Assembly (NCBI GenBank): GCA_017531445.1
Contig: JAFXKZ010000002.1
Location: 879,030-943,029 of the forward strand
Source of the DNA: Kiritimatiellia bacterium
GTDB lineage: Bacteria; Verrucomicrobiota; Kiritimatiellia; RFP12; DVOR01
Length of the DNA: 64,000 nt
Direction of reading: 5' to 3'
The notes beneath the pieces are model-generated. The model worked only from the letters and a program-made list of their open reading frames with translations. It did not search any database and was not told where the DNA came from. Shown here piece by piece: positions 43,820-64,000 of this stretch. Position numbers and translations under genes: made by a program. The stretch's first letter is position 1, and each line of letters opens with the position of its first letter.

Positions 43820-43909
43820 TGGCGGAGAGGGAGGGATTCGAACCCCCGGTACCTTGCGGCACGCATGATTTCGAGTCATGTGCATTCAACCAGGCTCTGC
43901 CACCTCTCC
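43820..43909 (-). tRNA. tRNA-Ser (anticodon CGA)
   Basis: This is a class II tRNA of 90 nt with a long variable arm and encoded CCA. Stem CATGA/TCATG encloses loop CTCGAAA, giving CGA, which reads UCG. Confidence 0.95.
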
Positions 43910-43912
43910 TGA

Positions 43913-43987
43913 TGGCACCCCCAAGCGGAGTCGGACCGCTCTTCCAAGGATGAGAACCTTGTGTCCTAACCGATAGACGATGGGGGC
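43913..43987 (-). tRNA. tRNA-Glu (anticodon CTC), copy 1
   Basis: Stem CAAGG/CCTTG encloses loop TTCTCAT, giving CTC. CCA is encoded. It is nearly identical to the next gene (one base differs in the D-arm region). Confidence 0.95.
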
Positions 43988-44006
43988 AATGGCTTTTCCT
44001 TACAGG

Positions 44007-44081
44007 TGGCACCCCCAAGCGGAGTCGGACCGCTCTTCCAAGGATGAGAACCTTGTGTCCTAGCCGATAGACGATGGGGGC
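44007..44081 (-). tRNA. tRNA-Glu (anticodon CTC), copy 2
   Basis: This is a tandem duplicate of the preceding tRNA-Glu, starting 94 bp from it, with the same anticodon loop TTCTCAT and encoded CCA. Confidence 0.95.
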
Positions 44082-44099
44082 ACAGGAAAAGTTTGCTTG

Positions 44100-44184
44100 T
44101 GGTGCACCCGGTGGGACTCGAACCCACACGCCTCTCAGCATAAGAACCTGAATCTTACGTGTCTGCCAATTCCACCACGGGTGC
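44100..44184 (-). tRNA. tRNA-Leu (anticodon CAG)
   Basis: This is a class II tRNA with stem TAAGA/TCTTA and loop TTCAGGT, giving CAG, which reads CUG. It has a long variable arm and encoded CCA. Confidence 0.95.
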
Positions 44185-44196
44185 AACTGCTCTAAA

Positions 44197-44273
44197 TGGT
44201 CGGAGCGAAGGGATTTGAACCCTTGACCTTTTGGTCCCGAACCAAACGCGCTACCAGACTGCGCTACGCTCCG
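44197..44273 (-). tRNA. tRNA-Pro (anticodon CGG)
   Basis: Stem TTTGG/CCAAA encloses loop TTCGGGA, giving CGG, which reads CCG. CCA is encoded. It is the first gene of the five-tRNA cluster. Confidence 0.95.
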
Positions 44274-53449: not shown

Positions 53450-54304
53450 ATGTTTCCGATACTTCAGAAAGACCAATTATCCGCCGACGTCTATTCCATG
53501 TGGATTCACGCACCGCTGATTGCCCAGGAACGGCAAGCCGGGCAATTCATCATCCTTCAGGTCGATGAACAGTTCGGCGAACGCATTCCGCTGACCATTG
53601 CCGATGCCGACCCGGTCAAAGGCGCGGTGCGCATTATCTTCCAAGCGGTGGGAGCCTCTACTAAACGGTTGGCACAGTTGCATCCCGGCGACAGCCTCCC
53701 CGTCTTTCTCGGTCCGCTCGGAAAACCTACCCATATCGAGCAAAAAGGCACCGTCGTCTGCGTTGGCGGCGGCATCGGCGTTGCGCCCCTGCACCCCATC
53801 GCACAAGCGATGAAACGCGCCGGCAACAAGGTGATTGTCATCATGGGTGCCCGCACTAAAGACCTCCTGATTCTTGAGAAAGAGATGGCCGCCATCGCCG
53901 ATGAGCTCATCCTCTGCACCGATGACGGCTCCTACGGACGCAAAGCCCTCGTAACCGAACCGCTCAAGGAAGTCTGCGAACGCGAACCTGTGGCAGAATG
54001 TGTCACCATCGGTCCGCCCATCATGATGAAGTTCTGCGCCCTCACCACCAAGCCTTACAACGTTCCCACCACCGCTTCGCTCAACTCCATCATGATCGAC
54101 GGCACCGGAATGTGCGGCGGTTGCCGCGTCCTCGTGGGCGGGCAAATCAAATTCGTCTGCGTGGACGGACCGGAATTTGATGCACATCAAGTCGATTTCG
54201 ACAACCTGATGAAACGGAATCGCGCCTTTGCCAAACGTGAACGCGAAGATGATTGCAACCTCTTCAAAATGGCTGCGGCCAAAACTGCCGAAGACAACCG
54301 CTGA
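53450..54304 (+). CDS. NfnA/SudB-like FAD/NAD-binding and [2Fe-2S] oxidoreductase subunit
   Basis: This 284-residue protein belongs to the ferredoxin-NADP reductase/PyrK family. The FAD-binding part includes GQFIILQVDEQFGERIPLTIAD. The NAD(P) loop is VCVGGGIGVAPLHPIAQAMK. The C-terminal iron-sulfur cysteines lie in DGTGMCGGCRVLVGGQIKFVCVDGPEFD. With the next gene it forms an NfnAB/SudAB-type complex, which in known cases couples NADH, NADPH and ferredoxin by electron bifurcation. The start at 53450 has GGAG six bases upstream. Confidence 0.88.
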   Translation: MFPILQKDQLSADVYSMWIHAPLIAQERQAGQFIILQVDEQFGERIPLTIADADPVKGAVRIIFQAVGASTKRLAQLHPGDSLPVFLGPLGKPTHIEQKGTVVCVGGGIGVAPLHPIAQAMKRAGNKVIVIMGARTKDLLILEKEMAAIADELILCTDDGSYGRKALVTEPLKEVCEREPVAECVTIGPPIMMKFCALTTKPYNVPTTASLNSIMIDGTGMCGGCRVLVGGQIKFVCVDGPEFDAHQVDFDNLMKRNRAFAKREREDDCNLFKMAAAKTAEDNR

Positions 54305-54321
54305 ACAAAGGGATGTGCCCC

Positions 54322-55815
54322 ATGTCTTTTATCGCCAAAGAAACCCTTGAAGCCGAAGCCTGCGCCCTTTGGGCAACCCTCAAAGAGAAACCCCTCACCC
54401 CCAAAGAGCGCAACGCGCTCGCTCAGCAGCCCATGCCGGTGCAGCCCCCCGAAGAGCGCAAACACAATATGCAGGAAGTCGCCATCGGCTACAGCGAAGC
54501 ACAAGCCCGCATTGAGGCCAACCGCTGTTTGCAATGCAAGAACGCCCCCTGCATGAAAGGGTGCCCCGTCGCGATCAACATCCCCGGATTCATCCGCGAA
54601 ATCGCACAGGGGCACTATGCCGAAGCCCTCGGCATCATCCGCCGGAACAGCATCCTTCCGGCCATCTGCGGGCGCGTGTGTCCACAAGAAAATCAATGTC
54701 AGAAAAATTGCACCGTCGGGCTGATTCATAAAGACGTCAATCAAAGTGTCGCCATCGGCCGCTTGGAACGCTTTGTTGCCGACTGGCAACGCGCTCACGA
54801 AGCCGAAGCACCCATTGACAACACCGTGGCCCCTGCCACCGGTAAAAAGGTCGCCGTCGTCGGCTCCGGACCCTCCGGCATCACCGTTGCCGCCGACGTC
54901 CGCCGTGCGGGGCATGAAGTCACGCTCTTTGAAGCCTTTCAGAAGCCCGGCGGGGTGCTTGTCTACGGCATCCCCGAATTCCGCCTGCCCAAAGCCATCG
55001 TTGACCAAGAGGTTGAGGGGCTCAAACAGATGGGCGTTCACATCGAGCCCAACTTTGTTGTCGGCCGCACCCGTAAACTGCGCGACCTCATGGAGAAAGA
55101 CGGCTTTGACGCCGTCTACGTCGGGTCCGGCGCAGGATTACCACGCTTCATGGGTATCCCCGGCGAAGAACTCGTTGGCGTCTTCTCCGCCAATGAGTAT
55201 CTCACCCGCGCCAATCTCATGAAGGCCTACGACCGCGCCGCAGCCGCCACCCCCTATTACCCGGCCAAGCGCGTTGCCGTCCTCGGCGGAGGGAACGTTG
55301 CCATGGATGCTGCGCGTATGGCGTTCCGTCTCGGCGCGGAAGAGGTTTACCTCATTTACCGCCGTAGCCGCGCAGAAATGCCGGCCCGCGCAGAAGAAGT
55401 GGAACACGCCGAAGAAGAAGGGGTCAACTTCCAATTTCTCTGCAATATCGAGCGCATCCTCGGTGACGAGAACGGCATTGTAAATGCCATTGAATGCCTT
55501 CGCTACGAACTCGGCGAACCCGATGCCTCCGGCCGCCGCAGTCCCGTCCCCGTAAAGGGCAGCGAATTCACCCTCCCCATCGATGCGGTCATCATTGCGA
55601 TCGGCAACGCTTCCAATCCCCTGATTCCGCAGACCACACCCGGTCTTGAAATCAACCGGCGCGGCAACATCATCGTTGACGACACGCAAGCGACCAGCAT
55701 TCCCGGTGTCTTCGCCGGCGGCGATATCGTTCTCGGTGCCGCCACCGTCATCCTCGCCATGGGCGAAGGCCGCCGCGCCGCCCAAGCCATCAACGATTAC
55801 CTCGCCAAAGAATAA
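54322..55815 (+). CDS. NfnB/GltD-like NADPH oxidoreductase subunit
   Basis: This flavoprotein of 497 residues is the larger partner of the preceding gene. The N-terminal iron-sulfur region is CLQCKNAPCMKGCPV and CGRVCPQENQCQKNC. The FAD loop is VAVVGSGPSGITVAADVRRAGHEVTLFEA, followed by GGVLVYGIPEFRLPK. The NADPH loop is VAVLGGGNVAMDAARMAFRLGAEEVYLIYRRSRAEMPA. The end has GVFAGGDIVLGAATVILAMGEGR. It may be annotated as glutamate synthase small chain or SudA, but no large glutamate synthase subunit is present. The CRISPR array begins one base after its stop codon. Confidence 0.93.
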   Translation: MSFIAKETLEAEACALWATLKEKPLTPKERNALAQQPMPVQPPEERKHNMQEVAIGYSEAQARIEANRCLQCKNAPCMKGCPVAINIPGFIREIAQGHYAEALGIIRRNSILPAICGRVCPQENQCQKNCTVGLIHKDVNQSVAIGRLERFVADWQRAHEAEAPIDNTVAPATGKKVAVVGSGPSGITVAADVRRAGHEVTLFEAFQKPGGVLVYGIPEFRLPKAIVDQEVEGLKQMGVHIEPNFVVGRTRKLRDLMEKDGFDAVYVGSGAGLPRFMGIPGEELVGVFSANEYLTRANLMKAYDRAAAATPYYPAKRVAVLGGGNVAMDAARMAFRLGAEEVYLIYRRSRAEMPARAEEVEHAEEEGVNFQFLCNIERILGDENGIVNAIECLRYELGEPDASGRRSPVPVKGSEFTLPIDAVIIAIGNASNPLIPQTTPGLEINRRGNIIVDDTQATSIPGVFAGGDIVLGAATVILAMGEGRRAAQAINDYLAKE

Positions 55816-55816
55816 T

Positions 55817-57078
55817 CTTTCAACGCTTCGTTCTTTGATATGATTACTGCAACTCTTTCCAAATTGCGCAACTTGTGAAGGGGTCGCGGTTTCAGTAGTT
55901 TGTTCTTTGATATGATTACTGCAACATATAGTATTTACAGGGTTTTGGGCGGTGACGCACTGTTTCAGTAGTTTGTTCTTTGATATGATTACTGCAACGA
56001 GCAAGAGAGCGAAACAATCCGTGAAGATGCACTAAGTTTCAGTAGTTTGTTCTTTGATATGATTACTGCAACCGCAGCAGCAGCGCAACAATGCTCGTCA
56101 GATTAAGAGTTTCAGTAGTTTGTTCTTTGATATGATTACTGCAACGCAATCCCGGGCGCGACTACACCGCGCAGCTAGCGTTTCAGTAGTTTGTTCTTTG
56201 ATATGATTACTGCAACTCGTCAGTCGTTGAGGTTTCGCCGTCAGGGGAAGGTTTCAGTAGTTTGTTCTTTGATATGATTACTGCAACAGTAACTTCAGTC
56301 GTTGCAGAAGTCTGCGAAATGTTTCAGTAGTTTGTTCTTTGATATGATTACTGCAACAGATTTTACCGCTAGGTGCAGATGCTAGTGCTAGGTTTCACTA
56401 GTTTGTTCTTTGATATGATTACTGCAACCCTTTTGGGCTGTGTTCTTAATCTCGCCGAAGTTGGTTTCAGTAGTTTGTTCTTTGATATGATTACTGCAAC
56501 GTGACGAAGTTTGCCGAAGTGCCATCCTACAAGGTTTCAGTAGTTTGTTCTTTGATATGATTACTGCAACTTATCCTTTTCGGGCGTGAAGTGTTCGCAG
56601 GGCTTTTCGTTTCAGTAGTTTGTTCTTTGATATGATTACTGCAACAACAATGATAAGCCTTTGATTTTTCAAACTAAAAAAGTTTCAGTAGTTTGTTCTT
56701 TGATATGATTACTGCAACGTATTGTTTGAGGCGTGTAGATGGCAACGATAATGAGGTTTCAGTAGTTTGTTCTTTGATATGATTACTGCAACCTCTGAGG
56801 TCTGCGCGGAAGTGCTTGTTGATACGTTTCAGTAGTTTGTTCTTTGATATGATTACTGCAACTTACAAGTTCGCAAAGAGCAAAGGCTTACTGGAGGTTT
56901 CAGTAGTTTGTTCTTTGATATGATTACTGCAACTTTCTTTTCGGCGGCCACCTCTGGCCCCATCGTCTGTTTCAGTAGTTTGTTCTTTGATATGATTACT
57001 GCAACACTTGTGCAGAAGTCCGCAACCAAAGCGGATATAGAGTTTCAGTAGTTTGTTCTTTGATATGATTACTGCAAC
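55817..57078 (+). CRISPR. Type II-B CRISPR array, 18 repeats and 17 spacers
   Basis: The repeat is 37 bp, beginning GTTTCAGTAGTTTGTTC and ending GATATGATTACTGCAAC. Spacers are 33-38 bp. Repeat starts are 55817, 55889, 55962, 56036, 56109, 56180, 56251, 56321, 56392, 56464, 56534, 56609, 56682, 56756, 56826, 56897, 56969 and 57042. The first repeat is degenerate in its left half (six changes), and the ninth has one change (GTTTCAC). The plus orientation is shown by the tracrRNA anti-repeat and by a terminator at the right end. Each repeat carries TGATATGAT, an extended -10 nine bases before the spacer. Confidence 0.98.
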
Positions 57079-57135
57079 AGCTCTTCAAAATCTTAGAAAA
57101 TCAAGGTTTTGAGGGGCTGTTGCAGTTTATTTTTT
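57071..57135 (+). terminator. Array terminator built from the last repeat
   Basis: A 24-bp stem (three G-U wobbles) pairs 57071-57094 with 57103-57126 around loop AGAAAATC and is followed by TTTATTTTTT. Its first eight bases, ACTGCAAC, are the end of the last repeat. Confidence 0.9.
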
Positions 57136-57163
57136 CTCACATTGCTCTTTTGCATTCTTTGGA

Positions 57164-57192
57164 TTGCTTTTTGCGAAAAAAAGTTATATAAT
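57164..57192 (+). promoter_or_regulatory. tracrRNA promoter
   Basis: TTGCTT (57164-57169), a 17-bp spacer and a perfect TATAAT (57187-57192) place the start at about 57199. Confidence 0.85.
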
Positions 57193-57198
57193 CTAGTC

Positions 57199-57274
57199 AT
57201 CAAAGAACACAACACTGAAATCATCTAAAATCAATCTTGGACCGCCCTCCGCTCAGCGTGGCGGTTTTATTTTT
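57199..57274 (+). ncRNA. tracrRNA of the type II-B system
   Basis: This RNA of about 76 nt pairs with the crRNA repeat and binds Cas9. The anti-repeat ATCAAAGAACACAACACTGAAAT (57199-57221) is complementary to the first 23 bases of the repeat at 19 positions plus one wobble. It forms an 11-bp lower stem, an internal bulge and an upper stem. The middle part, with ATCATCTAAAAT, resembles the known Francisella tracrRNA (AATCATTTAAAAG) as I recall it. A terminal hairpin ACCGCC...GGCGGT (57241-57265) and TTTTATTTTT end it. It converges on the cas4 stop codon. Confidence 0.9.
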
Positions 57275-57854
57275 AGAAGCGATCATTGCAATATTTCAGA
57301 AATTCACATTGTCCACATTGTGTATAACTTGCGCTCGAATCAGGAAAGACACCTTGATTCAATACTTTTCGTAAGTGATGAAGTATTACATTTGTTTGTC
57401 GATCAAGTGCTTCCGTTCGGGTAATCGTATGTATTTTCCTACTCAATCCAACGATGACAAGTGCAGTCTTAAATGTTTTTTTGAATTGTTCCTCCGCCAA
57501 CAATCCATAACACATTAGCTGAAACATGGTCGCCTTGGTGAGTTTGGGCATTTTATTTTTAAACTCAATGGGAACGATTTGCTGCTCGTCCTCTAATAAT
57601 GCATCAGGAATTCCGTGGATGTTTAATTGCAGGGACTTCAGTTTTGGAGAATAGTGAATTGTCGGATTATTCAGGCCAAATTTTTGTAATGACCGCCGTT
57701 TCATCAGTTCTGCCATCTTCAAATGATAATCAATGCCTTGTTTTACCCAAAGTTGGATGGGTTGTTGTATGCCAGCCACTTCCAAAAAGAAAGGGATCCG
57801 TGGACAAAACATGAACTGCCGGATTAAGCTAACGGGGATGCTATAAGGTCCCAT
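57273..57854 (-). CDS. cas4: CRISPR-associated exonuclease Cas4
   Basis: Cas4 is a RecB-family nuclease with an iron-sulfur cluster that trims prespacers and selects PAM orientation. It distinguishes subtype II-B from II-A and II-C. In 193 residues the four cluster cysteines are C17, C180, C183 and C189. The nuclease residues are H44, D84 (HGIPDALL), E97-x-K99 (PIEFK) and Q112-xxx-Y116. The start at 57854 (MGPYSIPVSLIRQFMFC) overlaps the cas2 end by 14 bases. The open frame extends further upstream, but that part reads through cas2. Confidence 0.93.
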   Translation of the reverse strand: MGPYSIPVSLIRQFMFCPRIPFFLEVAGIQQPIQLWVKQGIDYHLKMAELMKRRSLQKFGLNNPTIHYSPKLKSLQLNIHGIPDALLEDEQQIVPIEFKNKMPKLTKATMFQLMCYGLLAEEQFKKTFKTALVIVGLSRKIHTITRTEALDRQTNVILHHLRKVLNQGVFPDSSASYTQCGQCEFLKYCNDRF

Positions 57855-58149
57855 AGTCACTGTACTCCGGAAGAAGTTCTTTCGTATAGCCAAATCCATT
57901 TTCAGACAGAATACATGCACGTGCTTTCCCCGGTAAGAGAAAAGCCTTGTCTGTCGCAGCATCAAGGAGTGTTTTAAAGAGATTGATAATCGATTTTCTA
58001 TTTGCAAGTGTCGTATATCCCCAAAAAACGGAATGTTGAATGTGTATTAATCCAATATCTTTCAGTGCTTCTGCCATTTTCTTACGCTTTTTATCTGACT
58101 GTATGTCATAGCAAACCAGTACTTCTGTATAAATCGGAGGAAGTTTCAT
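57841..58149 (-). CDS. cas2: CRISPR-associated protein Cas2
   Basis: Cas2 forms the central dimer of the Cas1-Cas2 integrase. Its 102 residues show the ferredoxin-like fold start VLVCYDIQSDKKRKKMAEAL with conserved Asp15, then GLIHIQHSVFWGYTT. It lies three bases after the cas1 stop and overlaps cas4, so cas1, cas2 and cas4 are translationally coupled. An ACAATGAAAC start context without a strong Shine-Dalgarno fits coupling. Confidence 0.93.
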   Translation of the reverse strand: MKLPPIYTEVLVCYDIQSDKKRKKMAEALKDIGLIHIQHSVFWGYTTLANRKSIINLFKTLLDAATDKAFLLPGKARACILSENGFGYTKELLPEYSDYGTL

Positions 58150-58152
58150 TGT

Positions 58153-59148
58153 TCACCACTTAAAAAGATAAGGTTTATAGTTCTTTTTACCTGCAAAATG
58201 ACCTGAAAGTTTATATATCTGTCGTTGTAATATACTCTCCAACGACAGTCGTTTCCCATGATAGAGATGTTCGGCAGTAAACGTTTCTAGAACATCGGAG
58301 ACAATCTTACGTTTCACCGTATCACTGAGTGAAGCCTCTTTCAAAAAGCAATGTCGATTTTTGAACACAACTCTATCTACACACCATGCGCGGTACTCTT
58401 CCATCAAATCTAGAACCAGCGATGGCTTACCGGGACGCTCTACATGATAAAATCCAAGATAGGGCTCAAGCCCTGCCACTAAAAGCGCATTCCAAACTCG
58501 TGTCATTAAAATACTATACCCATAGTTCAAAGCGGCATTAATGGGATCAAGCGCACCTCTACCAATACGATTTCTGAACGTTTCTGGAAAAACTTTTAGT
58601 TCCACCCAAGTATTCCAATAGCGATTCGCGGCCGCGCCTTCAAGGCCCAACAATTGTGACCGGCAATCTTTCTTCAATGGCAAAAAGTCTTTTATCCTTT
58701 CCCCCATTAGTTTGAGATGTTCTACTGTCTCAAGTAATACTGTTCGCTTCTCCTCTTTGAACGTTGCATTTTTTCCAATGTAACACAAAACAGCTCTTTG
58801 ATTTCGGATCTTACCATAGGTGGTGCGAAGTGCTATCTCTGCGGCATCAAGTGAACGCTCTAAAAAGAGAACTTGATTTCGTCTTGTTAATCCTACTCCG
58901 TGACTACGGATACCAGACAATGCCGCGATGCATTCACCCAGTGAATTTAGGAAGAATAGCCGAATCCCATAAAGAGAACATGCTTGAATGAGATTACTTG
59001 ATACAGAAACACCTTGTTTCGCAATCGTAATTGAATGAAGTTGCGCAAGAGGATATTCCGCAAGAAGTTCTCCATGTTGCTTCACGACAACGCGCTCGCC
59101 GGTTGTCCCAAGCGAGGAACCATACTCACAGAGCACCAGATGCTTCAT
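58153..59148 (-). CDS. cas1: CRISPR-associated integrase Cas1
   Basis: Cas1 inserts new spacers into the array. In 331 residues the metal ligands are E170 (LLGLEGAAANRYW), H235 (FYHVERPGKPSLVLDLMEEYR) and the acidic pair D247/E250 or E251 in the same segment. The N-terminal beta domain starts MKHLVLCEYGSSLGTTGERVVVK. I chose the ATG at 59148 because it gives this standard start. It overlaps the end of cas9 by 23 bases. Confidence 0.96.
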   Translation of the reverse strand: MKHLVLCEYGSSLGTTGERVVVKQHGELLAEYPLAQLHSITIAKQGVSVSSNLIQACSLYGIRLFFLNSLGECIAALSGIRSHGVGLTRRNQVLFLERSLDAAEIALRTTYGKIRNQRAVLCYIGKNATFKEEKRTVLLETVEHLKLMGERIKDFLPLKKDCRSQLLGLEGAAANRYWNTWVELKVFPETFRNRIGRGALDPINAALNYGYSILMTRVWNALLVAGLEPYLGFYHVERPGKPSLVLDLMEEYRAWCVDRVVFKNRHCFLKEASLSDTVKRKIVSDVLETFTAEHLYHGKRLSLESILQRQIYKLSGHFAGKKNYKPYLFKW

Positions 59149-62100
59149 TTTCTTGTTTATTATAAAGTTCCCGCGCCAGCTTGGCCGATTCAATCGCACC
59201 ATGCAAGATGGTAAACTGTGCACCACTGGCAAGAATGCTACATTTTCCATCTCTAAACTTAAAATGGCGAAGCGCAGCATCGTTCTTCCAAGCAACTAAA
59301 AGACTTTCATTCAGTTTAATAGAACGGAAGATTTGCGCATGGAGGGGCACATTCGCCTGTGTAGCAAGTGAAGACAAAAAGTTTGTCTTAATCTTTAACC
59401 ATACTTTAGGGCGACCTTTAGACCCCGGTGAAAGTTGCGCTTCGAGAAGGGCAGAATCTATTAACATCTCTTCAGGAATAGGAAGTGTCAAACGCTTGTC
59501 CATCCGTGTGTATGATTGATGCGTTTTATATCTTCCTTTCACCCCATGTATATTCCGAGTGAGCAATTCGGGTCGTTCAACTTCTTGCTCAAAGTTGGTC
59601 ATCCCATTTATCACTTCAAAGCCTACAGTACTTGGAGATTTTGGAGTATTACATTCTAAAACTTGCCAAACAGGTGTTTCTTTCCCGCCGCGACGAATAC
59701 GGAAAGCCCCTGATGATGGCGGCTTCAAAATAGGTAAAGAGAAACCGGTTCGAGCATGTGTATGTCTACCAACACTCCTAGGGCGAGGCGCATATTTTTG
59801 GGCGATTCGTCTACAGAAATCACGCTCATTCACCTCGTTATCAATTTGTCCATCTAAGAGAATTTCACGCCACAAGGCATATGCAGGATGGCGCAACGTT
59901 TGTGTATGAAATAAACTCCTCCCTAATTTAAGAATTAATTTGTCACTTTTAATAAACGTATCAATACATGCTCGAATGTCTTCTCTTTTTTGAGCGATGT
60001 TTTCTTCCTCTGATAACTCACGGCCTTCTTTTTTTGCAGACTCTTTTCGCTTCTTTTCTTTTGAATCAACATCTCGTTTAAGTGCTTCTACCTGCTTAAA
60101 TACGGACTCCTTCAGAGTATAGTAGTGCAAGTTATCGAGTAGATCTGCTTGCAATATTTCTTCAGATGTTGCTTTATTCTTAGCTACGTGATGCAGAAAT
60201 TCTCTCGCATGATTGGCATGAATAGGATAAAGGCGACAGGTCATGGAGCCATCTTTAAGGTGCGCTATCCATTCTTCCAGTGTCGCAGGAGCACGTTCTG
60301 CTTTTTGTTGAAGGAATGGATGTAAGAGACGATAAATTTCATCTGCGGTCAACTTCTTTTGTGGTGAAATTTCACAATAAGCCTTTTCGTGCAAAGAGAA
60401 CCCAATGGCAAGTTTACCGGATTTTGGAAGTATCAAAGAGAGAAATTTGTCACCATAAATGGAATCCTTAAAGAGTTTCATTGTCGCGGGATGCTTATCA
60501 AATGGAGAAACTCTAGACTGCTTACGAATCTCAAATGCCGTCGGTAAATAGGATTGAATTAACGCATCACGATCTTCTTCCGTTATAACCTCTCCTTGAT
60601 TTAATCGCCAAGCATAGTTCCACATGCTAAATGCGAGTGTAGCATCCACAATATGACTAAAGGACGGTTGCTCATCTGGCTTCTTAAAAACAGGATACTT
60701 CTCCGCAAGATGACTCCTCAATTGACTTATTTCATCTGCATTCAAACGAAAAGCAATCACAGAAACATCTAACGGAACATTATCAGCCTTCAATTTTTTA
60801 CGAAGATAAGCTGAAAAATACTTCACAAGCCATCGCTGTGTCCCATTCACTTTTGTTTTATTCAACTGCTGGAGCTCTGCCAGAAGTGACTTTTTAACGT
60901 TTGATCCATCATTTAAGAAAAGAGCATGGCGAATGATTTGACGATCTTCTCTTTCCATTTCTGCAAACGCAGTCGCATAGTGCTTATTCCTCAATTGAAT
61001 CTGAGTAAATACAGTTTCAATTCTTGAACTGATCGTACGTACATTTGACGTTCCAAAGACAACGTTCAAATAATCCGACGACAGGTGTTCTAAAGTATAT
61101 TCGTTATTTGATTTTTTAGCATTACAACCTGCACAAGCATAAATTAGATTCGGCTCGGAATTAAAAATGGTGCCATGCGACTTTAATGAATTCGCACGCG
61201 GAATAATATGATCTATTTGACCATGTGACTCGATGCGTTTTCCACAATAAGGGCAAATACCACTTCCATCATTCTTAATGCGTGTATCTTTATCTTCCCA
61301 CTCTTTTTTGAAACGCTCCGCGTGGAGCTTCGCATTTCTTTTAATTTCATCTTTATCTTTACTTTTGTAATCATCTTTTTTCTTAATGTCTGACACATCC
61401 ATCGAAAATTCAAATGCATTTTCCTCTACTGCGAATGGGACTATCACCTGAGTTCGCGCCATGGAATATGCTTCAAAATGAGCCTGATACCAAGCCGTCA
61501 ATTCTTTAGCCTTAATATGTGCAAGGTCAATCGCGATGCGCTTAATTAATTTTGCAATCATTCCGTCAAAAGGTTCATTTGAATTCGCAGTTAAACGCTT
61601 CGCGTGCGCAATAGGTTCACCCTTTTGATCTATTTTAAATAAAGAACTTCTGAAATGATTATCATTTGTACAGTGGCGACAGGTATGGCTAAACCCATGG
61701 ATATCCCCCTCAAGAAGATCATATATTTGAGACCAAATAAATGGATTATTGTATCGATGCACAAGTGTTGAATGCTTATCCTCCTCAGGCTTTGCAAAGA
61801 AATCTGCAAGGACTTCAGCAGCTAATGGAATCTTACGGCGAAGTGCGTAGACCTCTTTACTCACGGTTTTATCTTCCAGAGGTGTCTCATAAACCTCTTT
61901 AAATGCCTGACCAAACCTCTTCTTCTCTTTCGTGGCATCCGCCCCAACAATCAAAGGGGTAAAACGACACATCCCAGCCTTTTTCTTTCCCAAGTCCTGC
62001 GGTAACGGTTTTTCATGTCGGGTAGAAAGATATACCTTAAGTTGAGACAATCCTTCTTCTGTTATCTCTTGCCCCAATAATAAACTCAATTGTTTGTGTG

Positions 62101-63538
62101 CTATCTTGTTTTTGTGAGGCGGGTTTTGATTACACAGTTTGAGGAGACGATTTGGAATTTCAGGATACCACTCACCCTTTTCTGCAGCATTACATTCCTT
62201 GAAATAACGTTTGACGCATACCAAAAAATTATCCGTATACTGACCCAAGCGCGCACGTAACGTTGCGATATCGTTTTCAATCGCTTTTTCATCTTTTTCA
62301 AAAACAATCTTACGCAAACTGATACAATCCGACCTCGAACTCCGATCAAAGAGGATTTGCAGTTTTCTTAACGCAATTTCCATTTCGTTTTGCGACTGAT
62401 TAACCACATAGGGCGCATTATCCAAAAACGACTGTGTATTCATCGCCTCAACCCAAAGGGGCCAATCGGGATAATCACGTGTTAAGACCTCTCCATCAAG
62501 GAGCAAGGCTGAACATTTTGGAGGATGGCGATTATTTTGATCCTCATATGGAGGAATTGAGTGCTTAGGATCTTTTTCCAACCAACATGCCAGAATTTTA
62601 CCTTCATTACTAGCGCACCAGTCCTTTAAATTCCTGTGATTTAAACGTTCTTCCGAAGAAATAGGATGCCATCCTAAAAGATAACGTTTAAACACTAACG
62701 CCATGCGGGACTCATCCCACTTATCGCCGATTTTCCATTCTGGCACATTGAAATATTTCCGCAAACATTTTAATTGAAGATTACTAATGTGCCCCACCAA
62801 ATTGGCGAAGCTTTCTGAAGTTAAATTCGTCTGTTGCAATGGCGAAAAAGTGCTCTCCCAAAACAAGTTAATATCCGCACGAATATCGTTTAAATATTCT
62901 ATACGAGACTTATGACCGGTTACCCCTTTTTGTAACGTAACCAACACGTCTTTGAGTTTTTTACGAATCTCTTGAAATGCTTTCCCTTTTTTCTTGTCAT
63001 TCTCACCTTCAAAATATGTTAACCTTTTCTTGTATTCATCCGAATCCTCATCCCACTTGAATACTTCCGCATTAAGACATTCATCAATCCTTAAAGCCAG
63101 ATCTCCCAATTGAGAATCAAGCGTTTTATCCTTATCCAAAAAAGTAAACCCATAATTATATAATTCTAATATACTCGGCAAACCATCTGTGTCAATCTCC
63201 TCTGTATAATAAGAAAAACCTCTGCGATTAAGTAATCCATTAACCCCATCTTCAAATCTCATTCTCTTTGTAATATCAAGCAATTCTAATCTAACACCAT
63301 AATGCGACTTCAAAATCACCCACAATAACCGTTTTGCAAGTTTCCGTCGTTTATACCCGCGAACCTGATGCCGCTTTTGAGTTCGTTTTTTCTGCCCCAA
63401 CGTGAGGTCGCCTGGATCAACAACAATCAAAGAAGCATTCAAAGAAGTCACCGCAGAACTCGCCTCTTGAAGCGATACGACACCCGTATGAACCGCACCA
63501 AGATCTACCGCAATGGGAGAAACAACATTTGTAACCAT
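59126..63538 (-). CDS. cas9: Cas9 endonuclease, type II-B
   Basis: This RNA-guided DNA nuclease has 1470 residues, in the large size class of II-B Cas9 (Francisella Cas9 has about 1630). RuvC-I is SPIAVDLGAVHTGVVSL with Asp12. An Arg-rich bridge helix follows (KKRTQKRHQVRGYKRRKLAKRLL). RuvC-II is PFAVEENAFEF around residue 705. The HNH domain has ICPYCGKRIESHGQIDHIIPR with H777, and a second zinc pair CAGC. RuvC-III is SHIVDATLAF with H962 and D965. The last 200 or so residues should read the PAM. Codon use and composition are much AT-richer than in the neighbouring genes. Confidence 0.97.
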   Translation of the reverse strand: MVTNVVSPIAVDLGAVHTGVVSLQEASSAVTSLNASLIVVDPGDLTLGQKKRTQKRHQVRGYKRRKLAKRLLWVILKSHYGVRLELLDITKRMRFEDGVNGLLNRRGFSYYTEEIDTDGLPSILELYNYGFTFLDKDKTLDSQLGDLALRIDECLNAEVFKWDEDSDEYKKRLTYFEGENDKKKGKAFQEIRKKLKDVLVTLQKGVTGHKSRIEYLNDIRADINLFWESTFSPLQQTNLTSESFANLVGHISNLQLKCLRKYFNVPEWKIGDKWDESRMALVFKRYLLGWHPISSEERLNHRNLKDWCASNEGKILACWLEKDPKHSIPPYEDQNNRHPPKCSALLLDGEVLTRDYPDWPLWVEAMNTQSFLDNAPYVVNQSQNEMEIALRKLQILFDRSSRSDCISLRKIVFEKDEKAIENDIATLRARLGQYTDNFLVCVKRYFKECNAAEKGEWYPEIPNRLLKLCNQNPPHKNKIAHKQLSLLLGQEITEEGLSQLKVYLSTRHEKPLPQDLGKKKAGMCRFTPLIVGADATKEKKRFGQAFKEVYETPLEDKTVSKEVYALRRKIPLAAEVLADFFAKPEEDKHSTLVHRYNNPFIWSQIYDLLEGDIHGFSHTCRHCTNDNHFRSSLFKIDQKGEPIAHAKRLTANSNEPFDGMIAKLIKRIAIDLAHIKAKELTAWYQAHFEAYSMARTQVIVPFAVEENAFEFSMDVSDIKKKDDYKSKDKDEIKRNAKLHAERFKKEWEDKDTRIKNDGSGICPYCGKRIESHGQIDHIIPRANSLKSHGTIFNSEPNLIYACAGCNAKKSNNEYTLEHLSSDYLNVVFGTSNVRTISSRIETVFTQIQLRNKHYATAFAEMEREDRQIIRHALFLNDGSNVKKSLLAELQQLNKTKVNGTQRWLVKYFSAYLRKKLKADNVPLDVSVIAFRLNADEISQLRSHLAEKYPVFKKPDEQPSFSHIVDATLAFSMWNYAWRLNQGEVITEEDRDALIQSYLPTAFEIRKQSRVSPFDKHPATMKLFKDSIYGDKFLSLILPKSGKLAIGFSLHEKAYCEISPQKKLTADEIYRLLHPFLQQKAERAPATLEEWIAHLKDGSMTCRLYPIHANHAREFLHHVAKNKATSEEILQADLLDNLHYYTLKESVFKQVEALKRDVDSKEKKRKESAKKEGRELSEEENIAQKREDIRACIDTFIKSDKLILKLGRSLFHTQTLRHPAYALWREILLDGQIDNEVNERDFCRRIAQKYAPRPRSVGRHTHARTGFSLPILKPPSSGAFRIRRGGKETPVWQVLECNTPKSPSTVGFEVINGMTNFEQEVERPELLTRNIHGVKGRYKTHQSYTRMDKRLTLPIPEEMLIDSALLEAQLSPGSKGRPKVWLKIKTNFLSSLATQANVPLHAQIFRSIKLNESLLVAWKNDAALRHFKFRDGKCSILASGAQFTILHGAIESAKLARELYNKQENEASGAL

Positions 63539-63911: not shown

Positions 63912-64000
63912 ACCCGGCAGCGTGCTACTCTCCCACCAGCGAACCTGGCAGTACCCTCGCCGATGAGGCTCTTCACTTCCGTGTTCGGAATGGGAACGGG
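63912..64000 (-). rRNA. rrf: 5S ribosomal RNA, 3' part (5' end off window)
   Basis: Read on the minus strand, the sequence has CCGTTCCCATTCCGAACACGGAAG, then GGTACTGCC and GGGAGAGTAGCACGCTGCCGGGT, the conserved 3' portion of 5S rRNA. The gene continues past base 64000, so an rRNA operon enters from the right. Confidence 0.95.

What the first reader, a model, noticed from the sequence alone, without database searches (positions are those of the whole stretch)
57273..63538. Complete type II-B CRISPR-Cas9 locus in a probable PVC-group chromosome
cas9, cas1, cas2 and cas4 are tightly packed with overlaps, beside an array and a tracrRNA. Cas4 with a ~1500-residue Cas9 defines subtype II-B, the rarest of the classic type II subtypes and mostly known from Proteobacteria such as Francisella, Legionella and Wolinella. 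All RuvC and HNH catalytic residues are visible, so this Cas9 should be active. The host genes do not look proteobacterial.
Basis: partly seen in the sequence, partly recalled or inferred. Interest (0 to 1): 0.85.

Follow-up and report, generated by a model that had tools for sequence, protein, structure and literature searches.

The report
Backward-growing CRISPR-Cas9 array in Kiritimatiellota
A bacterium of the phylum Kiritimatiellota carries a complete type II-B CRISPR-Cas9 immune locus whose guide array is predicted to be read toward the cas genes and likely grows at that same end, so that each guide RNA would be made from a small predicted promoter inside its own repeat, a possible answer to how this rare subtype reads out its memory.

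Summary
Confirmed: cas9-cas1-cas2-cas4 (window 63538-57273, minus strand), an 18-repeat array (55817-57078) and a plus-strand tracrRNA gene (about 57199-57275) form a complete type II-B locus. Cas9 and Cas1 fall in the II-B clade; the nearest named relative is a goat-rumen Kiritimatiellae MAG. The window's genome is in the same order, so the PVC guess holds. The system is sporadic (2 of 345 genomes of the class), has 40% GC against 57% before it, and shares the genome with a II-C-like Cas9 system.

The new part is array logic. A 2026 paper says where II-B arrays are transcribed and acquire spacers is undetermined. In 31 distinct II-B arrays, two leader boxes sit about 56 and 93 nt from the cas-proximal repeat (25 of 31 each; mirrored trailer side 0 and 1 of 23). 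Extra degenerate repeats were found only at the far end. So acquisition is predicted at the 3' end of the crRNA-sense array, as in II-C. A -10-like TANNNT starts at repeat positions 22-27 in 22 of 31 (shuffled 5.7), suggesting a promoter in each repeat. The two nearest relatives with arrays lack it, and no transcript data exist.

The parts
54253..55815 (+). glutamate-synthase-small-subunit-like host gene (name from sequence, no family search run); its stop codon lies 1 nt from the array's oldest repeat, leaving no intergenic leader on that side
   Evidence: 80-91% identical in 15 of 16 congeners
55817..55853 (+). oldest, degenerate repeat: 6 mismatches, all in positions 1-13 (tracrRNA-pairing half); positions 14-37 with the -10-like TATGAT intact
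   Evidence: predicted duplex with tracrRNA -14.2 against -23.3 kcal/mol for the intact repeat
55817..57078 (+). CRISPR array, 18 repeats of 37 nt, 17 spacers of 33-38 nt; crRNA sense on the plus strand, opposite to the cas operon
56146..56179 (+). spacer 5, resembles (28 of 34 nt) a phage-type exonuclease gene in a prophage-like region of a congener
57064..57069 (+). -10-like TATGAT (extended TGATATGAT) at repeat positions 23-28, shown for the newest repeat; the same in all 18 repeats
57071..57126 (+). 24-pair leader-repeat hairpin (-36.4 kcal/mol, z -10.7) built on the last 8 nt of the newest repeat, followed by TTATTTTTTC; predicted array terminator
57164..57192 (+). predicted tracrRNA promoter TTGCTT-17-TATAAT (not reported by the scan, whose -35 rule it misses)
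   Evidence: read
57170..57177 (+). leader box 2 (TTTGCGAA), inside the tracrRNA promoter spacer; box 1 has no match to the pattern in this locus
57199..57275 (+). predicted tracrRNA: antirepeat 57199-57220, tail, terminator 57249-57275
57273..57854 (-). cas4 (193 aa)
   Evidence: TIGR00372 86.6 bits; PADLOC Cas4_II 4e-61
57841..58149 (-). cas2 (102 aa)
   Evidence: TIGR01573 37.4 bits; PADLOC Cas2_II 2e-24
58153..59148 (-). cas1 (331 aa)
   Evidence: TIGR00287 219.6 bits; PADLOC Cas1_II 2e-111; tree
59126..63538 (-). cas9, type II-B (1470 aa), catalytic residues present, HNH with four cysteines (C762, C765, C802, C805)
63912..64000 (-). 5S rRNA, cut by the contig end
   Evidence: RF00001

Best explanation
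This is a complete type II-B CRISPR-Cas9 locus in a Kiritimatiellota genome, likely acquired horizontally, whose array is predicted to be transcribed toward the cas genes from a -10 element inside each repeat while new spacers likely enter at that same cas-proximal end. Shown: gene content, clade membership, rarity and low GC, tracrRNA pairing at the sequence level, the fixed leader boxes, and the decay pattern of trailer repeats. Inferred: Cas1-Cas2-Cas4 insert each new spacer beside the leader between the array and cas4; RNA polymerase starts near each repeat/spacer boundary and makes a short spacer-repeat RNA; a hairpin built on the newest repeat would stop transcripts before the tracrRNA gene. 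The short RNA would pair with the tracrRNA through the repeat's 5' half, be trimmed by RNase III, and guide Cas9 to phage DNA. The oldest repeat has lost much of its tracrRNA pairing but kept its -10, as expected if it serves only as the promoter for spacer 1.
For: II-B membership. Host and rarity; GC 40.4% for the cas genes against 56.8% for window 1-55700. Polarity: leader boxes at 52-60 and 88-97 nt on the cas-proximal side in 25 of 31 distinct arrays each, 28 with at least one, 22 with both; mirrored trailer distances 0 and 1 of 23; shuffled leaders gave 0.6 of 27 per box; 3 of 4 arrays analysed after the pattern was fixed have both boxes. The tracrRNA tail CTG[AT]AATC is on the crRNA strand of the leader flank in 27 of 35 arrays, on the other strand or the trailer side in none. 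Repeat -10: TANNNT starting at 22-27 in 19 of 27 (null 4.7, 0 of 20,000 shuffles), 22 of 31 pooled (null 5.7, maximum 17). A trailer-side sigma-70 promoter is not general: 2 of 21 beat shuffles at p under 0.05. Terminal repeat decay: in 8 of 24 arrays examined a terminal copy keeps the 3' half (16-18 of 18), with 45 mismatches in positions 1-18 and 2 beyond.
Against: No transcript or acquisition data were seen for any of these loci. The two nearest relatives with arrays, L006 (Kiritimatiellae) and L007 (Rifleibacteriota), have no TANNNT at 22-30, nor do L019, L024 and L106. L006 and L027 have good sigma-70 promoters outside the trailer end, so some arrays may be read from outside. Of the 4 arrays analysed after the test was fixed, only 2 met the -10 prediction. 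The position window was chosen after seeing the first repeats, and another class (TG...C, 18 of 27) is nearly as enriched near the repeat end. The sigma-70 scan found 2 promoter-like sites in 55700-57400 against 2.9 expected by shuffling: the repeat has no good -35. L009 and L046 show the opposite decay pattern, and truncation without selection could explain part of it. L020's array is inverted; it was re-oriented after seeing its leader boxes. The repeats are related, so shuffles overstate significance.
Confidence: 0.6

Rival explanations
1. The array is transcribed as one long pre-crRNA entering from the trailer side, by read-through of the co-directional gltD-like gene or an external promoter, and processed by tracrRNA and RNase III; the -10-like box is incidental.
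For: The gltD-like gene is co-directional and ends 1 nt before the array; L006 and L027 have strong trailer-side promoters (p 0.027 and 0.010) and no TANNNT at 22-27.
Against: Only 2 of 21 trailer flanks beat shuffles, near chance; the repeat box is enriched far above shuffles; the oldest repeat keeps its -10 half although a read-through model gives it no task.
Confidence: 0.25
2. TANNNT in the repeat is a constraint of spacer integration or of crRNA-tracrRNA pairing, not a promoter; polarity is as stated but the source of transcription is something else.
For: The repeat's 3' half pairs with the antirepeat in some loci (e.g. L012, L016); other position classes are enriched too (TG...C, 18 of 27).
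Against: The box start shifts between positions 23 and 27 while repeat length stays 36-37, as promoters tolerate; T, A and T are the three most conserved positions of a bacterial -10 (recalled, established knowledge).
Confidence: 0.2
3. The array is oriented the usual way: a leader promoter drives transcription away from the leader, i.e. in the same direction as the cas genes (the 'Cas Orientation' expected for II-B by PMC6737040).
For: PMC6737040 (passages read) reports that CRISPRDirection calls, available for about 30% of II-B loci, agree with cas direction; it has no II-B locus in its experimental set.
Against: In the window the tracrRNA promoter, antirepeat and terminator are on the opposite strand, and the tail is on that strand in 27 of 35 arrays and on the other in none; PMC3936727 (passages) also gives II-B arrays as opposite to the cas operon.
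Confidence: 0.05
4. A dead, decaying locus in transit.
For: Sporadic presence; the oldest repeat is degenerate.
Against: The four ORFs are open, catalytic residues present, 16 of 18 repeats identical to the consensus and 17 spacers, one resembling a prophage gene of the genus.
Confidence: 0.04

Closest known systems
Type II-B CRISPR-Cas (Francisella novicida type; PsCas9 of Parasutterella)
   Same: Gene set and order cas9-cas1-cas2-cas4 (35 of 47 named loci match all four), large Cas9 with the Csx12 helical lobe, 37-nt repeats, tracrRNA between array and cas4, array opposite to the cas operon
   Different: Kiritimatiellota host; Cas9 25-39% identical to 27 of the 28 others in A1; under NCBI's naming cut-off; HNH with four zinc-type Cys/His, seen in the window's clade and two Campylobacterota loci but not in the 23 other aligned II-B Cas9s
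Type II-C arrays with a promoter in each repeat (Neisseria, Campylobacter; described in PMC13187072, passages seen)
   Same: Acquisition end at the 3' end of the array, -10-like element in the 3' part of the repeat, mutated first repeat; the window genome's own II-C-like array ends its repeat in TGATACAAT
   Different: In II-B the box ends 5-10 nt before the repeat end (9 in the window; start would fall near the spacer boundary), whereas in the own II-C-like repeat it is at the very end; repeats 37 and spacers about 35 nt instead of 36 and 30; not shown by transcript mapping
II-B loci of Spirochaetota, Rifleibacteriota, Chlorobiota and others in public genomes
   Same: Same operon; leader boxes and tracrRNA tail in most
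   Different: Separate, more distant Cas9 lineages; Rifleibacteriota is the nearest named outside group

Membership tests
Type II-B CRISPR-Cas | Cas9 of the Cas9b/Csx12 family | tested here: met
   PADLOC Cas9b 1e-114, Pfam PF21069 336 bits; inside the 46-row II-B clade, 100%. Against: 368 bits to TIGR03031, under its naming cut-off of 399.4; this is a naming threshold, not a defining trait
Type II-B CRISPR-Cas | cas4 in a cas9-cas1-cas2-cas4 operon | tested here: met
   35 of 47 named II-B loci match all four genes, 12 do not, mostly because the sequence held is short or cut
Type II-B CRISPR-Cas | Cas1 of the II-B lineage | tested here: met
   34 II-B Cas1s against 15 II-C-like Cas1s, split at 100%; window with L006 at 100%, with L007 at 97%
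Type II-B CRISPR-Cas | tracrRNA with antirepeat and terminator | tested here: met
   antirepeat 57199-57220, duplex -23.3 kcal/mol against mean -13.5 (sd 3.0, minimum -25.2) for 300 shuffled tracrRNAs; terminator. Expression not testable
Type II-B CRISPR-Cas | RNA-guided double-strand cleavage by Cas9 | not testable with these tools
   Catalytic residues D12, E705, H777, H962, D965 present
II-C style promoter-per-repeat arrays | -10 element in the repeat | tested here: inconclusive
   TATGAT in all 18 window repeats; TANNNT at 22-27 in 22 of 31 distinct II-B repeats, but absent in the nearest relatives
II-C style promoter-per-repeat arrays | Acquisition at the 3' end of the transcript | tested here: inconclusive
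   Met by comparison only: fixed leader boxes on the cas side, extra degenerate copies only on the far side (6 of 32). No acquisition was observed
II-C style promoter-per-repeat arrays | Transcription starts mapped at each repeat | not testable with these tools
   No transcript data held
Kiritimatiellota (PVC group) host | Placement by whole-genome taxonomy | tested here: met
   Same order as G042; G042's Cas9 region L003 lies inside L006 of record JAFTCL010000032.1, Kiritimatiellae bacterium RGIG3692. No marker-gene tree of my own was built

The most novel reading that the evidence does not exclude
Type II-B as a whole runs its immune memory backwards: new spacers enter at the 3' end of the crRNA-sense array beside a leader marked by two boxes about 37 bp apart, and the repeats carry their own promoters, so each spacer is transcribed on its own and survives any later acquisition. 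II-B and II-C would then share one array logic, with II-A the odd one out.
Probability: 0.55. Interest if true: 0.72.

Novelty: new member of a known kind. Interest (0 to 1): 0.6.

Why it matters
[quoted passage not shown] The comparison here gives a specific, testable answer (acquisition end, leader boxes, predicted start sites) from loci in several phyla, and names cultured carriers. It also brings a Kiritimatiellota Cas9 clade that scores under the standard naming cut-off, and a genome with two different Cas9 systems. II-B Cas9s are of interest as high-fidelity editors (PMC12231574, passages), so correct crRNA ends matter for using new ones.

Tried and rejected
Spacer targets: the whole array against phages gave one match at E 5, against plasmids none; the 3' 22-23 nt of 6 of 17 spacers had no exact match in IMG/VR (the other 11 were not scanned). 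Only spacer 5 gave a usable match, so no PAM is claimed; its one protospacer-like site has GGGG on the 3' side but three mismatches right beside it. The other 8 loci kept (L096-L103) had 9-14 mismatches and were dismissed, 93 of 95 genomes had some match at E up to 10.

The four-cysteine HNH looked at first unique to the window's clade, but two Campylobacterota loci have it as well (3 of 41 locus Cas9s matched by the pattern have CPYC: L006, L029, L033), so it is noted and not used as a hallmark.

Leader hairpins are not general: 14 of 32 leaders have z under -2 in the first 60 nt, but so have 14 of 32 in the next 60 nt. Only the window's own hairpin is claimed.

A larger out-of-sample set was sought in five groups of genomes (5 of 67, 2 of 274, 3 of 56, 7 of 48 and 1 of 39 matched, most apparently loci already held) and in viral contigs, plasmids and phages (1, 0 and 0 hits). 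Four arrays were added (L008, L037, L105, L106); L008 and L037 had been held earlier but failed the three-copy rule. L017, L018, L031, L107 and L108 showed no array.

Rows dropped: L050 (simple tandem repeat) before one search's results, L025 (partial 26-nt repeat) before the repeat statistics; 31 arrays were reduced to 27 distinct at more than 4 mismatches. The decay count includes L029, whose flank reads N.
Full report
What is there. The window's last 8 kb hold four overlapping or abutting cas genes on the minus strand, cas9 (59126-63538), cas1 (58153-59148), cas2 (57841-58149) and cas4 (57273-57854), then a plus-strand tracrRNA gene and an 18-repeat array (55817-57078) whose crRNA sense is the plus strand. 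The array's far end lies 1 nt from the stop codon of a glutamate-synthase-small-subunit-like gene, and the contig ends in a 5S rRNA gene just past cas9.

Subtype. Cas9 matches PADLOC Cas9b (1e-114), Pfam Csx12 (336 bits) and, in the PDB, 8umf/9ko9 (328 bits) ahead of 5b2o and its kin (205-208 bits); that the last are Francisella Cas9 and 8umf is PsCas9 is recalled. NCBI's II-B equivalog gives 368 bits, under its cut-off of 399.4. Trees of Cas1 (49 rows) and Cas9 (67 rows) split II-B from II-C-like proteins of the same phylum at 100%; no named II-A reference was in them (the Cas9 tree is FastTree and has long branches). The window's Cas9 sits with P0002, P0003, P0005, P0006 and the goat-rumen Kiritimatiellae protein of L006 (100%); Rifleibacteriota is near it (91% on Cas9, 97% on Cas1).

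Host and history. The window's genome (G000, 1.40 Mb in 2 contigs, estimated 50% complete) is in the same order as G042, whose Cas9 locus L003 is contained in the named record of Kiritimatiellae bacterium RGIG3692. Among 345 genomes of the class only these two have the family; none of 16 congeners (66-95% complete) does. In 14 congeners whose contig continues past the gltD-like gene, the first 276-400 nt hold no such repeat (read by eye; a 15th had no downstream sequence, the 16th no orthologue). The cas genes have 40.4% GC, the window before the array 56.8%, which suggests recent transfer. The genome also carries a second type II system on contig C1: Cas9 of 1250 aa, Cas1, Cas2 and 43 repeats of 36 nt with 30-nt spacers, of II-C layout: the array follows cas2 and no cas4 was found; csn2 was not searched and no subtype model was run.

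Beyond Proteobacteria. Of 47 II-B loci in named genomes, 12 bear titles outside Proteobacteria in the old wide sense: Kiritimatiellae, Rifleibacterium, five Leptospira-group, Spirochaetota, Brevinematales, Lachnospiraceae, Chlorobiota and Nitrospira; most are MAGs and some labels may be wrong.

Array polarity. PMC13187072 (passages) calls the location of II-B transcription and acquisition undetermined; PMC6737040 (passages) expects II-B arrays to follow cas direction but has no II-B locus in its experimental set; PMC3936727 (passages) gives them as opposite. Searches of the held library that showed me no later answer; in the 12 of 19 passages of the Legionella paper PMC5071653 that I saw, laboratory acquisition is shown for type I-C. 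I compared 35 arrays (31 distinct). The tracrRNA tail CTG[AT]AATC is on the strand opposite to cas9 in the leader flank of 27 of 35, on the other strand or in the trailer flank of none (strand relative to cas9 holds for all but the inverted L020, which has no tail match). In the leader, counted from the last repeat, a TT(n)CG(n)A box lies at 52-60 nt in 25 of 31 and at 88-97 nt in 25 of 31, most often 37 bp apart (14 of 23 pairs); three have neither (L006, L023, L105). The trailer side has 0 and 1 of 23 at mirrored distances, and no trailer column passes 0.6 bits against 9 leader columns. The pattern was written after seeing the first leaders; of four arrays analysed afterwards three have both boxes. 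L020 is inverted as a unit with its leader. In the window, box 2 lies between the -35 and -10 of the predicted tracrRNA promoter, and box 1 is not matched.

Degenerate repeats. The first scan found an extra degenerate copy one unit outside the array in 6 of 32 arrays, each time on the cas-distal side. In a second scan of 24 arrays with a long enough trailer flank (one reads N), 8 have a terminal copy that keeps the 3' half and differs in the 5' half; L009 and L046 show the reverse. In the window the oldest repeat keeps positions 14-37 and loses about 9 kcal/mol of tracrRNA pairing. If transcription runs from old to new, that repeat would otherwise give a useless guide, and the only part worth keeping is a promoter.

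The -10 box. TANNNT starts at positions 22-27 in 19 of 27 distinct repeats (shuffles 4.7, sd 1.9), and the peak beats the best of any window in 5000 shuffles. Pooled with the corrected L020 and four later arrays it is 22 of 31, or 26 of 31 at 22-30; of the four later ones 2 meet the 22-27 rule. Exceptions include the two nearest relatives of the window. The class TG...C near the repeat end is almost as enriched (18 of 27). Repeats are related to one another, so shuffles overstate significance. The general sigma-70 scan gave no excess in the array (2 found, 2.9 expected) and did not report the tracrRNA promoter either.

Working model. Shown: sequence features above. Inferred: transcription starts near each spacer boundary; the short RNA pairs with the tracrRNA and loads Cas9; Cas1-Cas2-Cas4 insert at the leader side; the 24-pair hairpin on the newest repeat ends array transcripts before the tracrRNA gene. 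Because each insertion copies the repeat, both the promoter and this hairpin's repeat arm would be renewed each time.

Target. Spacer 5 resembles (28 of 34) a gene of G003, a congener, that matches a phage exonuclease family, beside RecT-like, replication-initiation, RusA and terminase small subunit genes (6 of 12 distinct proteins scanned matched PHROGs). This suggests phages of the genus as targets; it is one imperfect match.

Verdict. The locus is a new, divergent member of II-B; its main value is that it led to a testable account of II-B array polarity.

Noticed in passing
L093:7210-15122 (G000:C1:about 83,200-91,100): A second, II-C-like Cas9 system with 43 repeats in the same genome; its repeat ends in TGATACAAT and its oldest repeat differs at positions 1, 2 and 5 only.
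   Followed up: partly
leaders of 28 of 31 distinct II-B arrays, e.g. L007, L012, L039, L044: Two TT(n)CG(n)A boxes (at least one in 28) at fixed distances from the array, conserved across phyla; box 2 overlaps the predicted tracrRNA promoter in the window. A system-encoded factor (adaptation complex or Cas9) may bind them; unexplained.
   Followed up: partly
window cas9 HNH, residues 762-805; also L006, L029, L033: Four zinc-type Cys/His residues (CPYC...[CH]xxC) in the Kiritimatiellota clade and in Sulfurimonas/Sulfurospirillum II-B Cas9, replaced in the other aligned II-B Cas9s.
   Followed up: partly
L020:16298-19575: Turicimonas muris II-B array is inverted as a unit with its leader relative to the cas operon.
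   Followed up: partly
L044:14341-15024: Thalassolituus II-B locus: one 228-aa ORF matches both Cas1 (1e-10) and Cas4 (1e-21), no cas2 was found, and 4 of 18 repeats have a mutation, as if an internal deletion had ended acquisition.
   Followed up: no
L105 (IMG/VR contig 3300030028_000001): A II-B Cas9 with an array (4 repeats found) on a contig classed as viral; perhaps a misfiled bacterial contig.
   Followed up: no
window 43820-44273: Cluster of five tRNA genes (Pro, Leu, Glu, Glu, Ser); the two adjacent tRNA-Glu genes share the anticodon CTC.
   Followed up: no
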